A DNA stretch of 7,868 bases from Clostridia bacterium (GTDB taxonomy: Bacteria; Bacillota_A; Clostridia; Oscillospirales; CAG-272). Of the stretch, positions 1,118 through 5,513 are shown piece by piece. A program made the translations under genes and the position numbers. The stretch spans positions 1 through 7,868 of the forward strand of contig JAGAIH010000428.1 in assembly GCA_017626655.1 (NCBI GenBank). The letters are read 5' to 3'. The notes under the pieces were generated by a model. That model worked only from the letters and a program-made list of their open reading frames with translations, was not told where the DNA came from and did not search any database. Within the stretch, counting starts at the first letter, position 1. The number at the start of each line of letters is the position of its first letter.

Positions 1118-1147
1118 CCTAAAACCTTTTTGTAAAAAGGTTTTAGG
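1118..1147. repeat. Perfect palindrome with 14-bp arms and a 2-base centre
   Basis: The left arm CCTAAAACCTTTTT (1118-1131) is the exact reverse complement of the right arm AAAAAGGTTTTAGG (1134-1147), separated by GT. It lies in the gap between the stop of the membrane-protein gene (1161) and the start of the double-CXXCG gene (1075). It is followed on the plus strand by a second short palindrome, GGAATTCC (1146-1153). The transcript would form a long hairpin on either strand. Neither side has a run of T after the stem, so it is not a classical Rho-independent terminator. It looks like a dispersed intergenic repeat or small non-coding mobile element of the kind common in gut clostridia. The family is not identified. 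It might still reduce read-through or stabilise the upstream mRNA end. Confidence 0.85.
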
Positions 1148-1160
1148 AATTCCAAAAACT

Positions 1161-2027
1161 TTAGAACAGGGTACTTTTCGTATGGGTCGTGACGAAATGA
1201 TTCATGCGGGCTTGCAGATCGGCAAGATCGGCAAACTCGGTCAGCGCCACCGTCTCGTCGGCATCGCTGTCGTCGCTCATAAAGACGGTCTCGTTATCGA
1301 GGTTGAAGCTGATGGTCTGCCCGTTTCGGGTCACGAACAGGTCGATCATGCCGTCCTCCTCGCGGAAGACGCACTCGGTGATGGTGGTCCCCGCCTCAAA
1401 AAAGTCGGGGGCGGAGTCGGATTCCAAAAGCGTCCAGACCTCACCGAAAAGCCCTTCACGGACATACGTTTCCTCGGCGGTAACGGTATCTGTGGCGGGA
1501 GCGGCGGACGGGATGGCAGTAGGATTCATGCCCGCAAGCTTTGTCTGAGCCTTACGGATACACCACATGACGTACCTTCCTTCACCCGTGGCGGTGATTG
1601 TAAAGCCCTCCCCTTCCAAAACAAGGCGAGGGGTGCGGCCCTTGGAGTGTGGGTACAGGTAGGTCACCTTCATGGAACGGATCTCGGAGAGGGGCACACT
1701 TCCATTTCCTCGGTAGTGGGTCTTCTTGCGAGAGTCGGGGTCTTTCCGCAGCTCGGCCTCGGCGTGAAAGAAATACAGGGTGTCCTCGGTGATGACGAAA
1801 AATATCTTTTTACGACATCCGAGCATGACGATGAGGAAGATGGGCAGCTCCAAAGCGCAAAGGATGGTAACAAAGAGTCTTGCATCGTCGGGAATGGGGA
1901 AAATATAACAGAGAGCAGTCGTGAAAACCAACAGGATACTGACTCCCCATGCATGGTAAAAGCCCTCGGTGCGTAGCTTTTGGCCTTTGAGGGCCGCGGG
2001 ATCAAGGTTCTTTTGTTTTTGGAGCAC
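1161..2027 (-). CDS. Membrane protein with two N-terminal helices and a PH-like cytosolic domain
   Basis: A 288-residue protein. A short charged N-terminus is followed by two hydrophobic helices (about residues 26-46 and 50-70) joined by the short turn PIPDDAR, forming a hairpin that would leave both ends in the cytosol. Next come the strands KIFFVITEDTLYFF (73-87), VPLSEIRSMKV (111-121) and RLVLEGEGFTITATG (134-148), a pattern typical of bacterial PH-like (bPH) domains behind a membrane anchor. The acidic C-terminal part (about 180-288), with 'DETVALTEFADLADLQARMN', is a second soluble region that I do not recognise. The start is GTG at 2027, chosen because GGAGGGG (2035-2041) lies seven bases upstream. 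The gap to the ATPase stop is 16 bases, so it is the third gene of the TerB unit. A role as membrane anchor or sensor for that system is inference only. Confidence 0.8.
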   Translation of the reverse strand: MLQKQKNLDPAALKGQKLRTEGFYHAWGVSILLVFTTALCYIFPIPDDARLFVTILCALELPIFLIVMLGCRKKIFFVITEDTLYFFHAEAELRKDPDSRKKTHYRGNGSVPLSEIRSMKVTYLYPHSKGRTPRLVLEGEGFTITATGEGRYVMWCIRKAQTKLAGMNPTAIPSAAPATDTVTAEETYVREGLFGEVWTLLESDSAPDFFEAGTTITECVFREEDGMIDLFVTRNGQTISFNLDNETVFMSDDSDADETVALTEFADLADLQARMNHFVTTHTKSTLF

Positions 2028-2043: not shown

Positions 2044-3471
2044 TTAAAAATCTATGTCTTCCGGATTAAACTTTTTCTGATTCTCCGCTGCCACGGGAGT
2101 CGTTCCCTTCTCTGTCGACCGTTCCGCGGCGGTGGGCGCCCACGCATCTCCGTCACCGTCGCTGTCATCATCCGCCCGCTTCAAAGTCACCGCCGACCCC
2201 ACCACCTGCTCGAAGGTGGCCTCGGGGTTCTGCATGAGGATGTTCAGGACGGTCATGTAGTCGCGGAGCATCTCGCGGGGGGTGATCATGCTGTCGGCAC
2301 CCGCGCGGGAGAGGCAGAGGTTCAAGAAGGCCAGCTGCTGGGCGTCGGTGATGCGGCACTCCCAGCCGTAGAACTGGGCGTAGAGGGCGGTCACGCGGCG
2401 GATCAGGGCCAGCAGCTCGTCGTCGGCCAGACGGCGGAGACGGATGACGGGGCCGATGAGATTCTTGAAGCCCTCCAAGGCGAATCGGCTGTCGCAAAGG
2501 CGGGAGCGGAGAGCCTCGTAGGAGAACAGGCCTCGGCGGGGATCCTCCAGAAACTGGGGGGTACCGCCGAAGACAATTCCCAGACCCGGGGCGCGACCCT
2601 GGAGGGTATCGTTGAACATGGAGAGGATCTTCTCGTAGTTGTTCTCACGGCTGACGCGGTGGACGATCTTGTAGAGGTTGACGCACTCGTCGATGAAGAC
2701 CATGAGGCCTCGGTAGCCCATCTTGCGGACCAGAGAGGCCCAGAGCTTGAGGAAGTCGTACCAGTTGTCGTCGTCGATGATGACAGACACGGGAAAGCCG
2801 AGTTCCCCCCGGGCTTCGGTTTTGGTGGCGTACTCACCTCGGAGCCAGCGCAGGCAGGCGGACATCCGCAGGCGGGCGGTCTCCCCATCCTCGCGGTAGG
2901 CCTTGTAGTAGGCGGTGATGACCCGGGCGAAGTCGAAGCCCCCCACCAGGAATTCCAACTCCCGCATGGTATCGCTGACCTTGCGGGTCATGAGATCGTC
3001 AAAGCGGGGATCCTCGGGGGACACGCCGTTCGAGATCAGCTCGTCCTGCATCATACCGATCCAGCGGGCGATGAGCTTGGGGAGAGCGCCGCCGTCGGGG
3101 GAGGCCTTGGAGGCGAGATTCTTCATCAGCTCGCGGTAGGTGGCCACGCCCGACCCGCCGCTGCCGTAGAGACGGCGCTCGGGGGAGAGGTCGGCGTCGG
3201 CGGTGATGAAGTCCCGCTCCAGGGCGTAGCCGCGGATGAGCTGGATCAGAAAGCTCTTACCGCTTCCGTAGCGGCCGATGAGAAAGCGCATGGAGCCGCC
3301 GCCCTGGTCGATCTGCTCCAGGTCGGAGAGGAGCGCTGAGATCTCGTCCTTGCGCCCGATGGCGATGTAGGGTGCCCCCGCGCGGGGGACCACTCCCGCC
3401 GACACCGAGGCCAGCAGGGACCCCAGCACGCGGCGCGGGACTTTCACTTGATTCTGATTGGAATTTTCCAT
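2044..3471 (-). CDS. P-loop ATPase of the DUF2791/BrxC-BrxD family
   Basis: A 475-residue cytosolic ATPase of the AAA/STAND-like P-loop class, the BrxD-like group seen in BREX and TerB-associated cassettes. The N-terminal segment has GAPYIAIGRKDEI (32-44), the family's usual entry into the nucleotide-binding core. Walker A is GRYGSGKS (66-73). Walker B is GLMVFIDECVNL (255-266), with D261 and E262 as the metal-binding and catalytic acids. A sensor segment follows, GIVFGGTPQFLED (298-310), then GLFSYEALRSRL (314-325) with arginines that could act as fingers. A helical lid region lies at 345-425. The tail ends in KKFNPEDIDF after an acidic, low-complexity linker (433-462). All key residues are present, so it should be active. 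The ATG at 3471 has GGAG six bases upstream and starts 14 bases after the TerB-N stop. It very probably works with the TerB-N protein; the substrate, likely DNA or a protein-DNA complex, is inferred. Confidence 0.88.
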   Translation of the reverse strand: MENSNQNQVKVPRRVLGSLLASVSAGVVPRAGAPYIAIGRKDEISALLSDLEQIDQGGGSMRFLIGRYGSGKSFLIQLIRGYALERDFITADADLSPERRLYGSGGSGVATYRELMKNLASKASPDGGALPKLIARWIGMMQDELISNGVSPEDPRFDDLMTRKVSDTMRELEFLVGGFDFARVITAYYKAYREDGETARLRMSACLRWLRGEYATKTEARGELGFPVSVIIDDDNWYDFLKLWASLVRKMGYRGLMVFIDECVNLYKIVHRVSRENNYEKILSMFNDTLQGRAPGLGIVFGGTPQFLEDPRRGLFSYEALRSRLCDSRFALEGFKNLIGPVIRLRRLADDELLALIRRVTALYAQFYGWECRITDAQQLAFLNLCLSRAGADSMITPREMLRDYMTVLNILMQNPEATFEQVVGSAVTLKRADDDSDGDGDAWAPTAAERSTEKGTTPVAAENQKKFNPEDIDF

Positions 3472-3485
3472 ATATATCTCCGTTA

Positions 3486-5513
3486 TTACAAAAGCTCAAT
3501 GACTTGTTCGCGATACTCTTCGATCACGGTATACCCGCCCATGCCGTCATCCTCCAGGATGATATCCCCGATCTCCCCGTCGGCGGTGAGAGCGTTGATC
3601 TCGTCGGCCAGCGCGTCGGGCATCTTCCCAAGGGCCTTGGCGGCGGCGCGAAGGGCGGCGGAATCACCGTCCAGAGCGGCCTTGATGAAGGGGGCGTAGG
3701 GGGCAAGTAGTGGATCTTCCCCACTCTCGACGGTTAAGGTAGGCTTGATATTGACCGCGCTCTTGCCGTTCTCCCCGTTCTCCTCCGTTTGCGCCGCAGG
3801 CGCAACATCATTCCCCGAGCTTGCTCGGCGGACATCGTTTGCGCCCCGCGCAACTTCATTTCCGCCCGGCGGAACATCATTTGCCGTATCCACGGCAACC
3901 TCATTTGCCGCTCCGTCGGCAACCTCAAAGGCCTCCACCAGAATACGGGTGGTCTCCCAGGAATCCGCCTCAATGGCCGCGGCATCCTCCAGCGACACCG
4001 CCTTGCGCGGCAGATCGTACAAGGCCTCGTAGGCGGGGCGGGGTTCTTCCTTTTTCTTGACGACAGCGGCGGATTTCGGCGGCTCCAGGGGGTTCAGGTA
4101 GGCGTCCAGCGCGTCCCGCAGAGGGAGGGGCAGGGACATGACCGACAGCTTGGAGCGCACCCCGATCCAGCCCCGCAGACGGTTCTCCACGTGCTTGACC
4201 ATGTCGCCCATGAGGAAGCGCAGCTCGTGGGAGCGGGAGAAGGAGGTGTAGGAGACCTCGATCCTGCGCTTGTTGCGGTAGGAGCAGAGAGCCCCCGTGT
4301 AGGCGTCGCGGGTGACGGTGGAATCCAGCATGGTAATCGCCGGCTTGCCGGCAGGCTTCTGACCGTTGGCCCCCAGAAGCAGGGGGAGAACGTGGGCCAC
4401 GGCGGCGGGAATGGTGGAGTCGAACAGCGCCTTATGCTCACCGCTGGCGAACTTGGACTTGCGGTAGTCGTACTGACAGCAATGCCGCATCAGAATGCGG
4501 GCGGTCTGCAGGGCAGTGGGGTCGGCCTTACCCGCGGGCGCGGTTGCGCCCCCCTCGGGGAGACGGACGGCGGCGGAGAGGTAGAACTCCTTCAGTCGGC
4601 TTTCCTGGATGACGGTATCCAGGGCAGGTGCCAGCAGATCCACGGGAGCGGTCAGCTCATGGATCAGACAATAGTCGCAAAGCCACTCGCACATATAGTG
4701 GTCCAGCTGGGGGAAGGGCTTGCGGTAGGCCATCCAGACCTTCGCCATGGCGTCTCGGCGGTCCATGGCCTCGGTTGTCTCACTCACGGGGAGGTTGATC
4801 AGCTCAAAGAGGTAGAGCAGGACGTAGGCGTAATCGGTATCGAGGTACTGCCCTCGGCGGGTATACTCCCGCCAGTAGAGGTACCAGGCCTCGGAACGGC
4901 GGTTCAGCTGGGTGTATTGAGGGAAATAGGAGAAGAAGCTGACCTTCTCAGCGGTCTTGGGAGGCTTCATACCGTCGTAACGGTGGGCGTCCTCCACGAA
5001 GCTGTCGAAGTAGTGGTAGCCCGTCTGCCAGCCGTAGACCTTGACGCTGTGGAGCAGGACGCCGTCGGGCTGATACTCGGTCAGCGGCTCGACGGACTTG
5101 CTCTCGCCTCGCTTGTAGGAGGGGACGTAATGGACGGCTGTGGCGGCGGTCTCGGGGGGTTTGGGTTGGGGCGAGGGGGAGGGCTGAGGATTCGGGCTGG
5201 GATCGGGAGCGGGCTTGGGGGCGGGCATGGGGCGGTCGTACTCCCCCGCGTCTCGGGTGCTTCCCTCCTCCCCTCCCAGGACCGTCAAGGGGACGGCGGT
5301 CACGGGCTGAGGAGCGGCTTTGGCCGAGGCTTCACCGGCAGGCTTCGCGGCGGTCAGCTCCACCTCCACCGCCGTAGGGGCGGGGCGGGACAGAGGCGGT
5401 GTACGGCGGATAGGCCGCTCGGGGAGGAGCTTATCCACGTCCCAGAAGTCGTCGATCTCCTTTTTGCGGTGGGATTCGTCGGTGTTTTGTCGTTTTTTCT
5501 CCCATTCGGTCAT
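3486..5513 (-). CDS. TerB-N/TerB-C domain protein, first gene of the accessory operon
   Basis: A 675-residue soluble protein. The short N-terminal motif IDDFWDVDKLLP (20-31) is typical of this family, followed by a proline-rich linker (about 95-121). TerB-N covers roughly 150-330: SVKVYGW, GYHYFDSFVEDA, VSFFSYFPQYTQLNR, AWYLYWRE, then DTDYAYVLLYLFELINLP and LDHYMCEWLCDYCLIHEL. The middle region (335-475) is helical. TerB-C follows in two parts, DSWETTRILVEAFE (517-530) and PDALADEINALTADGEIGDIILEDDG (632-657), separated by a low-complexity linker that holds the hairpin array (about residues 530-575). TerB-N/TerB-C proteins are thought to act with a P-loop ATPase and helicase in DNA-related stress or defence systems; the biochemical role is unknown. 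The ATG at 5513 has AAAGGAGG (5521-5528) seven bases upstream and its own strong promoter. Confidence 0.87.
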   Translation of the reverse strand: MTEWEKKRQNTDESHRKKEIDDFWDVDKLLPERPIRRTPPLSRPAPTAVEVELTAAKPAGEASAKAAPQPVTAVPLTVLGGEEGSTRDAGEYDRPMPAPKPAPDPSPNPQPSPSPQPKPPETAATAVHYVPSYKRGESKSVEPLTEYQPDGVLLHSVKVYGWQTGYHYFDSFVEDAHRYDGMKPPKTAEKVSFFSYFPQYTQLNRRSEAWYLYWREYTRRGQYLDTDYAYVLLYLFELINLPVSETTEAMDRRDAMAKVWMAYRKPFPQLDHYMCEWLCDYCLIHELTAPVDLLAPALDTVIQESRLKEFYLSAAVRLPEGGATAPAGKADPTALQTARILMRHCCQYDYRKSKFASGEHKALFDSTIPAAVAHVLPLLLGANGQKPAGKPAITMLDSTVTRDAYTGALCSYRNKRRIEVSYTSFSRSHELRFLMGDMVKHVENRLRGWIGVRSKLSVMSLPLPLRDALDAYLNPLEPPKSAAVVKKKEEPRPAYEALYDLPRKAVSLEDAAAIEADSWETTRILVEAFEVADGAANEVAVDTANDVPPGGNEVARGANDVRRASSGNDVAPAAQTEENGENGKSAVNIKPTLTVESGEDPLLAPYAPFIKAALDGDSAALRAAAKALGKMPDALADEINALTADGEIGDIILEDDGMGGYTVIEEYREQVIELL
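3789..3928 (-). repeat. In-frame array of six small hairpin units with a conserved linker
   Basis: Six inverted repeats follow one another inside the TerB-N coding sequence. In plus-strand letters the arms are TTGCGCC/GGCGCAA (3789-3805), CCGAGC/GCTCGG (3815-3828, with an imperfect extension), TTGCGC/GCGCAA (3839-3853), TTCCGC/GCGGAA (3860-3874), TTGCCGT/ACGGCAA (3881-3898) and TTGCCG/CGGCAA (3905-3922). Stem sequences differ between units but each pairs with itself. Every unit is followed by a six-base linker: CATCAT, CATCGT, CTTCAT, CATCAT, CCTCAT, CCTCAA. Linker starts are 27, 21, 21, 24 and 24 bases apart, all multiples of three, so the frame is kept. In the protein each linker reads N-D-V or N-E-V (F-E-V in the last). 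It resembles a palindromic element that has inserted and multiplied in a tolerant protein linker. Confidence 0.88.

What the first reader, a model, noticed from the sequence alone, without database searches (positions are those of the whole stretch)
3789..3928. Array of six self-complementary units with a constant linker, in frame inside the TerB-N gene
Each unit is a small hairpin whose arms change from unit to unit while keeping self-pairing. The units are separated by a six-base linker that is nearly constant (CATCAT and one- or two-base variants). All five linker-to-linker distances (27, 21, 21, 24, 24) are multiples of three. The array falls in the low-complexity joint between the two parts of TerB-C, where it encodes repeated N-D-V/N-E-V. 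This looks like compensatory change in stems plus selection for frame, comparable in concept to Rickettsia palindromic elements that insert inside genes. It may be a palindromic mobile repeat that expands in tandem, an mRNA structure that tunes translation, or a flexible protein tether.
Basis: partly seen in the sequence, partly recalled or inferred. Interest (0 to 1): 0.7.

Follow-up and report, generated by a model that had tools for sequence, protein, structure and literature searches.

The report
Hairpin-repeat array inside a defence gene
A run of six small DNA hairpins sits in frame inside a bacterial anti-phage gene; it looks like a copy of a hairpin-array repeat scattered mostly between genes in related gut Clostridia, a sister of the unexplained 'Gut-1 RNA', that has also come to lie in flexible parts of proteins.

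Summary
In detail: six hairpins at 3789-3922 with six-base linkers (CATCAT or variants) spaced 27, 21, 21, 24, 24. The 38 stem pairs are not explained by the protein: synonymous recoding gives mean 6.1, maximum 25 in 2000 trials. The gene matches sngA of the Shango anti-phage system; the array encodes a linker predicted disordered.

It is not ordinary low-complexity coding sequence. Arrays with the same linker and other self-paired stems occur, mostly between genes, in 15 of 146 related genomes (14 of 15 pass a palindrome test). Genome G154 has one in sngA and another, in opposite orientation, in sngC. At one intergenic site relatives hold an ATGATG array, hairpin arrays with a GTGAAAT-type linker (Rfam Gut-1 RNA in two of three sites scanned) or nearly nothing.

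Best reading: a genic copy of a dispersed, structure-defined hairpin-array repeat, sister to Gut-1, working like intragenic REPs or Rickettsia palindromic elements. Mobility is inferred; no mover was found. None of the 30 best RAYT loci has such arrays, though one other RAYT lies beside one (L034).

The parts
3486..5513 (-). host gene, sngA-like (Shango TerB protein, 675 aa)
   Evidence: Pfam TerB_N 1.1e-15; PADLOC SngA 4e-42
2044..3471 (-). sngB-like ATPase, next gene of the operon
   Evidence: PADLOC SngB 1.7e-164; Pfam BrxC_BrxD 5.6e-154
3789..3928 (-). whole array: six hairpins and six linkers, in frame, within residues about 530-578 of the protein
3905..3922 (-). hairpin 1 in coding order, 6-bp stem
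3899..3904 (-). linker ATGAGG
3881..3898 (-). hairpin 2, 7-bp stem; this 24-nt unit is missing in the sngA of G004
3875..3880 (-). linker ATGATG
3860..3874 (-). hairpin 3, 6-bp stem
3854..3859 (-). linker ATGAAG
3839..3853 (-). hairpin 4, 6-bp stem
3833..3838 (-). linker ACGATG
3815..3828 (-). hairpin 5, 6-bp stem
3806..3811 (-). linker ATGATG
3789..3805 (-). hairpin 6, 7-bp stem; with the bases that follow it (CAAACGGA) it reads like one end of several intergenic arrays
3923..3928 (-). outer linker TTGAGG; intergenic copies have ACGAGG at this end

Best explanation
The array is a copy, inside a gene, of a dispersed DNA repeat made of tandem small hairpins joined by a short constant linker (ATGATG class). 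The hairpin is kept as structure, not as sequence. The repeat sits mainly between genes, often beside a terminator, and belongs to a wider set of hairpin arrays that differ in linker (ATGATG, GTGAAAT, TCGATAT and others sharing a YGAWRT core), of which the GTGAAAT class is Rfam's Gut-1 RNA. Proposed mechanism: exposed single strands fold at the palindromes; units are gained, lost and replaced by strand switching or by a hairpin-acting enzyme at the linker; recombination then spreads the result between alleles. In sngA the array is tolerated because it encodes a disordered linker and because only units with lengths divisible by three survive. Shown: the anatomy, excess self-pairing, dispersed relatives, two host genes in opposite orientations, unit gain or loss, frame filter, linker-class difference at one site. 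Inferred: movement, the enzyme, strand switching.
For: Excess pairing over the protein's needs. Arm-matching in 121 distinct spacers chosen by linker alone: mean 4.63 outer pairs against 2.04 when mates are swapped, maximum 2.29 in 500 (24 viral loci and 10 loci of plain repeats were dropped beforehand). Dispersal: 15 of 146 family genomes, backward-pattern control 1 of 146; script finds two-unit palindromic arrays for 14 of the 15, none on reversed sequence. Same grammar at both ends: several intergenic arrays begin ACGAGG-TTGC and end GCGCAAACGGA like the sngA array. A second gene: sngC of G154 carries a four-hairpin array in antisense, read through in frame, G154's sngA has one too, and P0136 shows what reads as a single unit. 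Unit loss: window against G004 sngA differ by one 24-nt unit. Frame: 5 of 5 spacings divisible by three in the window; 35 of 127 other distinct units. Compensatory change: orthologous intergenic array TTGCCCC..GGGGCAA in G004, TTACCCC..GGGGTAA in G153. Site exchange: ATGATG array in G001, GTGAAAT-type arrays in relatives, near-empty in G153, two of three scanned being Gut-1 by Rfam.
Against: No mover found; RAYT genes are not associated (0 of 30 best loci; genome co-occurrence odds ratio 1.3, p 0.79), with one neighbour as exception (L034). No clean insertion in either gene. The array state changes 19 times on a tree of the N-terminal part (at least 14 forced), but a 72-column C-terminal tree forces only 1, and mosaic alleles (G154 sngA 57% identical overall with a near-identical linker) or chimeric metagenome contigs could make these changes without new insertions. 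The window's own genome could not be searched. Arrays are sparse: 131 of 146 family genomes lack the three-linker pattern.
Confidence: 0.75

Rival explanations
1. Ordinary low-complexity coding repeat: the protein selects a repeated N-D-V tether, and the palindromes are by-products of GC-rich alanine/glycine codons.
For: The linker is predicted disordered (pLDDT 28-36 in blocks of ten over about residues 531-600), and N[DE]V recurs in 39 of 119 homologues by a regular expression.
Against: Synonymous recoding does not give the pairing (0 of 2000). The same DNA units occur in places without a recognised gene and in antisense in sngC, where they encode different residues. Homologues 98% identical upstream use an unrelated linker (P0027/P0047, P0058/P0063).
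Confidence: 0.05
2. REP-type elements moved by a RAYT tyrosine transposase, as for GTAG REPs.
For: A RAYT gene lies just downstream of an intergenic array in L034 (NF047646 62.5 bits, below its cut-off of 80; PDB 4er8 E 3e-8). RAYT-like matches are common in the family (79 of 146, some of them IS200 cross-hits). GTGAAAT arrays co-occur with RAYT by genome (38 of 55 against 41 of 91, p 0.006). REPs inside genes are known (PMC3733652, PMC6006769).
Against: 0 of the 30 best RAYT loci have an ATGATG or GTGAAAT array within about 1.5 kb; 1 of 30 (L107) has an array of the wider linker set. ATGATG arrays do not co-occur with RAYT (9 of 15 against 70 of 131). G117, which has 18 matches, and G079 are absent from the list of RAYT-matching genomes.
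Confidence: 0.12
3. A functional RNA structure: transcribed hairpins next to terminators protect or end messages, and the sngA copy tunes sngAB expression. This is the view implied by Gut-1's listing as a certain noncoding RNA.
For: 40 of 76 arrays have a terminator-like hairpin within 150 nt, against 53 of 600 random positions (opposite arms of one element count twice). The region folds well. Gut-1 is marked Y for 'is RNA' in PMC2864571 (passage).
Against: The palindromes are the same on both strands and lie in either orientation in genes. Arrays are missing or of another linker class at an orthologous site. 80 of 119 sngA homologues lack the array.
Confidence: 0.15
4. Passive expansion by replication slippage or hairpin strand switching in place, without any mobile element; similar arrays arise again and again because hairpins breed hairpins.
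For: Unit number varies between alleles, and the G154 sngC array, a single unit in P0136 and none in the other homologues form a graded series.
Against: It does not explain the shared linker and shared end sequences in sngA, sngC and unlinked intergenic sites, nor near-identical arrays at separate loci of one genome.
Confidence: 0.2

Closest known systems
Gut-1 RNA (Rfam RF01706; PMC2864571)
   Same: Its model is three hairpins with variable stems joined by a constant linker (GUGAAAU). It occupies, in G004 and G150, the intergenic site where G001 has the ATGATG array.
   Different: Linker ATGATG instead of GTGAAAT; the window array has no Rfam match up to E = 1. It is inside a gene. The paper's passages call Gut-1 a noncoding RNA found only in environmental sequences.
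REPs / REPINs with RAYTs (GTAG and CGTC families; PMC3733652, PMC6006769)
   Same: Small dispersed palindromes, mostly between genes, tagged by a short unpaired motif, sometimes in frame inside genes, often in inverted pairs (sections and passages). Here 40 of 76 arrays have an opposite-orientation arm within 120 bp.
   Different: Tag is ATGATG, stems are not conserved in sequence, units stand head to tail, and RAYT genes are not flanked by them in the 30 best loci.
Rickettsia palindromic elements (RPE)
   Same: Palindromic DNA residing in frame inside genes (recalled; also mentioned in the PMC3733652 section seen).
   Different: Different host phylum; RPE sequences were not compared here; RPEs are, from memory, longer single inserts.
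PARCELs (PMC2996958)
   Same: Tandem palindromic coding repeats with variable copy number (abstract and part of one section).
   Different: PARCELs encode a 25-residue amphipathic motif; these units encode 7-9 residues of disordered linker and lie mainly outside genes.
Repetitive hairpin-forming elements of sponge mitochondria (PMC2800124)
   Same: Recurrent invasion of intergenic regions by structurally similar but sequence-divergent hairpin elements (abstract).
   Different: Mitochondrial; no constant-linker arrays are mentioned in the abstract.

Membership tests
Gut-1 RNA (RF01706) | covariance-model score at or above the gathering threshold | tested here: not met
   no match up to E = 1 in window 3700-4000
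Gut-1 RNA (RF01706) | GTGAAAT linkers between hairpins | tested here: not met
   linkers are ATGATG and variants
Gut-1 RNA (RF01706) | series of hairpins with variable, self-paired stems and a constant linker | tested here: met
   consensus shown
GTAG/CGTC REP | GTAG or CGTC tag at the foot of the hairpin | tested here: not met
   feet carry ATGATG variants; GTAGGGG near 5 of 76 arrays
GTAG/CGTC REP | cognate RAYT gene flanked by the repeat | tested here: not met
   0 of 30 best RAYT loci; one exception outside that set, L034
Rickettsia palindromic element | similarity to an RPE consensus | not tested
   no RPE sequence was compared
intragenic mobile palindrome (functional analogue) | present in some alleles, absent from close homologues, frame kept | tested here: met
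intragenic mobile palindrome (functional analogue) | clean insertion with an exact empty site | tested here: not met
   sngA and sngC show replacement; near-empty site only for one intergenic array in G153
CRISPR array | long near-identical repeats with unrelated spacers | tested here: not met
   repeats are six bases and spacers are palindromes
PARCEL | 25-residue motif (DUF285-like) | tested here: not met
   Pfam finds TerB_N only; units encode 7-9 residues
Shango system | SngA and SngB profiles | tested here: met
Shango system | third gene sngC in the operon | tested here: not met
   tblastn of SngC finds only a weak match (E 0.6) at the array itself; present downstream in L252, L004, L005, L006

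The most novel reading that the evidence does not exclude
Gut-1 is not a classical noncoding RNA but one linker class of a superfamily of structure-defined mobile DNA: arrays whose hairpins are recognised by shape while a YGAWRT linker serves as the class tag. Linker classes replace one another at the same sites, sweep through genomes of gut Clostridia, and enter genes in either orientation wherever the protein is floppy, including two of the three genes of the Shango defence operon.
Probability: 0.5. Interest if true: 0.75.

Novelty: new variant of a known kind. Interest (0 to 1): 0.6.

Why it matters
It joins three things that were apart: an orphan Rfam family of gut metagenomes (Gut-1), a set of hairpin arrays that I found in no library searched here, and in-frame palindromes in an anti-phage operon. 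If right, Gut-1 can be tested as mobile DNA rather than as RNA, and the arrays offer a natural experiment in which structure is kept while sequence is free. It also gives a way for defence proteins to gain and lose flexible linkers.

Tried and rejected
RAYT transposition: looked promising at L034, then failed on adjacency (0 of 30 best RAYT loci) and co-occurrence for the ATGATG class. IS200-like transposases: 0 of 30 loci. Phage carriage: the three-linker pattern hits 24 stretches in IMG/VR, but by eye only L131, L134 and L138 show varied palindromes; the rest are plain tandem repeats. A class-wide scan gave 12 of 391 genomes, of which by eye three (G258, G350, G484) are not palindromic. Protein tether alone, translation tuning, CRISPR and PARCEL were considered and rejected as explained. 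Reversed sequence is no control for the linker-free scan, since hairpins survive reversal (one search gave 163 against 163); second-order Markov sequence was used instead and gave 0 in five runs. One translation was made in the wrong frame and not used. The output was cut, so part was re-examined. The C-terminal tree had too few columns to force changes.

Papers: ten searches listed no paper that describes ATGATG hairpin arrays; this covers only the open-licence library and these terms.

Full report
What is there. The window is one 7868-base metagenome contig, with no genome held for it. On the minus strand it carries a 675-residue gene with a TerB_N domain that matches SngA of the Shango anti-phage system (PADLOC 4e-42), followed by SngB (1.7e-164). 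Shango is a three-gene TerB/ATPase/helicase system (passages of PMC10250203). SngC is not in the window: tblastn gives only a weak match (E 0.6), at the array itself.

More than chance. Six hairpins with 38 stem pairs were seen. Recoding the same protein with the gene's own synonymous codons gave a mean of 6.1 and never more than 25 in 2000 trials. So the protein does not force the palindromes. The true pairing of arms is the only one of 720 that reaches 38. AlphaFold2 gives pLDDT below 50 for residues 531-548 and 550-600, so the array, at about residues 530-578, is in a stretch predicted disordered; overall confidence of the model is modest (mean pLDDT 65.7).

Homologues. Of 467 SngA homologues found, the best 120 are listed; one (P0102) was dropped because its linker anchor was not found. 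A regular expression marks 39 of 119 as array-type; the others have unrelated linkers. On a tree of the part upstream of the linker the state changes 19 times, at least 14 forced by well-supported branches. A short C-terminal tree also needs 18 changes but forces only 1. Near-identical pairs differ in state: P0027/P0047 are 98.6% identical over 489 residues and P0058/P0063 98.1% over 474. Recombination is a likely contributor: G154's SngA is 57% identical to the window's overall but shares a near-identical linker. Many of these sequences are metagenome contigs, so assembly chimeras cannot be excluded. The window and G004 alleles differ by one 24-base unit.

Other copies. In 146 genomes of the family of G001, three AATGATGT linkers in series occur in 15, against 1 for the pattern read backwards; a script that asks for two palindromic units finds them in loci of 14 of the 15 (all but G118), and none on reversed sequence. 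In the genus of G004, 4 of 12 genomes match a looser pattern, with one control match in G003. Among 391 genomes of the class, 12 match, nine of them palindromic by eye. Taking 121 distinct spacers chosen by linker alone, arms match their own mates (mean 4.63 outer pairs) far better than other units' mates (2.04, maximum 2.29 in 500 shuffles); viral loci and ten loci of plain repeats had been left out. In 49 loci I counted 76 arrays of at least one unit: 40 have an arm of opposite orientation within 120 bases, 40 a terminator-like hairpin within 150 bases (53 of 600 random positions do), and nine an open frame running 60 codons beyond both ends. On inspection four of the nine are in recognised genes (sngA in the window, L001 and L019; sngC in L183); at L021 and L181 the array stands between two genes and the frame is antisense; one (L159:1703-1736) looks like a chance match inside another open frame; the remaining two are in short frames of no known family. 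Three of the four genic loci were fetched because they hold these genes or are the window itself, so the count does not measure how often genes are hit.

A second gene and the frame. In G154 an array of four hairpins lies in sngC (PADLOC 4.6e-241), in antisense, and is read through in frame with different residues for each unit because the units are 23 bases long. Of the 120 listed SngC homologues, P0122 (98% identical) has the array, P0136 shows what reads as one unit, and the rest of those whose linker could be cut out (118 of 120) do not. None of 30 SngC loci from other genomes has an array. G154's sngA has an array as well. In the window all five spacings are divisible by three, while 127 distinct units from arrays not assigned to sngA or sngC fall 35/50/42.

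Site exchange and Gut-1. For the seven-unit array of G001 (L008) I searched the orthologous place in 12 genomes of the genus and aligned seven. In G153 the flanks are 4 bases apart. In G004, G150, G005 and G154 the gap holds hairpins joined by ATTTCAC-type linkers (GTGAAAT on the other strand); in G151 a similar series with another linker; in G002 unrelated sequence. Rfam was run on three of these (L277, L278, L280): G004 and G150 score above the gathering threshold of Gut-1 RNA, RF01706, and G153 has no match. The alignment shows Gut-1 as three hairpins joined by GUGAAAU. The window's own array has no Rfam match up to E = 1. GTGAAAT series occur in 55 of 146 genomes and TCGATAT series in 24 of 146, with no match of the backward control in the rows shown; a few listed TCGATAT matches are not palindromic by eye. 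A linker-free scan of 263 fetched sequences found 22 seven-base linkers; 16 contain YGAWRT or its complement, where 128 of 16384 random words do, five more are shifts of the same linkers and one (GCGTAGC) is part of a hairpin; Markov controls gave 0 in five runs. These loci were mostly fetched by the ATGATG pattern, so class frequencies are biased. One orthologous intergenic array shows a compensatory change between G004 and G153.

Mechanism. Shown: anatomy, excess self-pairing, dispersal in relatives, residence in two genes in opposite orientations, unit gain or loss, a frame filter in sngA, a linker-class difference at one site. Inferred: that arrays move, that linkers are recognised, that hairpins are copied or extended on single strands. 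RAYT transposases were the natural candidate, but none of the 30 best RAYT loci carries ATGATG arrays, although one other RAYT gene lies just downstream of an array (L034). GTGAAAT arrays co-occur with RAYT genes by genome (p 0.006), ATGATG arrays do not (p 0.79); phylogeny was not corrected for.

Known precedents. REPs inside genes, kept in frame in flexible parts, are described in PMC3733652 (abstract and two sections) and PMC6006769 (passages). Gut-1 is listed in PMC2864571 as a certain RNA with no cis-regulatory role, human gut only (passages); one search for its names found no other paper in the library. The present arrays fail the membership tests of Gut-1 (linker, score) and of GTAG REPs (tag, RAYT), but work like both, hence 'new variant of a known kind'.

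Noticed in passing
window 2044-5513: The Shango operon looks incomplete here: sngA and sngB are present, sngC is not found in the window, while it follows within about 0.1 to 2.1 kb in L252, L004, L005 and L006.
   Followed up: partly
L252:2452-8497 (G154:C127): One relative carries hairpin arrays in both sngA (sense) and sngC (antisense) of the same operon.
   Followed up: yes
G001, 92 places: TCGATAT-linked hairpin arrays are very abundant in this genome (44 forward, 48 reverse matches), beside its ATGATG arrays.
   Followed up: partly
L278:617-747, L280:730-856, L277: Orthologous intergenic site with hairpin arrays of another linker class (Gut-1) or almost nothing, where G001 has an ATGATG array.
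   Followed up: yes
L034:1502-2239 (G022:C144): An ATGATG array just upstream of a RAYT gene, the only such neighbour seen.
   Followed up: partly
L142:2953-6470 (G117:C46): Two near-identical arrays in the same orientation flank genes that look like a DNA methyltransferase and its partner nuclease (judged from the sequence, not searched).
   Followed up: no
L037 (G016:C34), L158 (G137:C10): GTAGGGG-headed REP-like sequence lies beside some ATGATG arrays (5 of 76).
   Followed up: partly
P0095, P0101 (SngA) and P0232 (SngC) linkers: A recurring N-S-E-F-G-I-R-N-S-E-L-like stretch may be yet another repeat type in the same floppy linkers.
   Followed up: no
window 4343-4356: A short palindrome coincides with a four-residue in-frame addition (GQKPAGKPAITM against the consensus GQKPAITM) in the same gene.
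   Followed up: no
window 1118-1162: A 14-bp perfect inverted repeat with a second palindrome beside it, between two genes; possibly a terminator.
   Followed up: no
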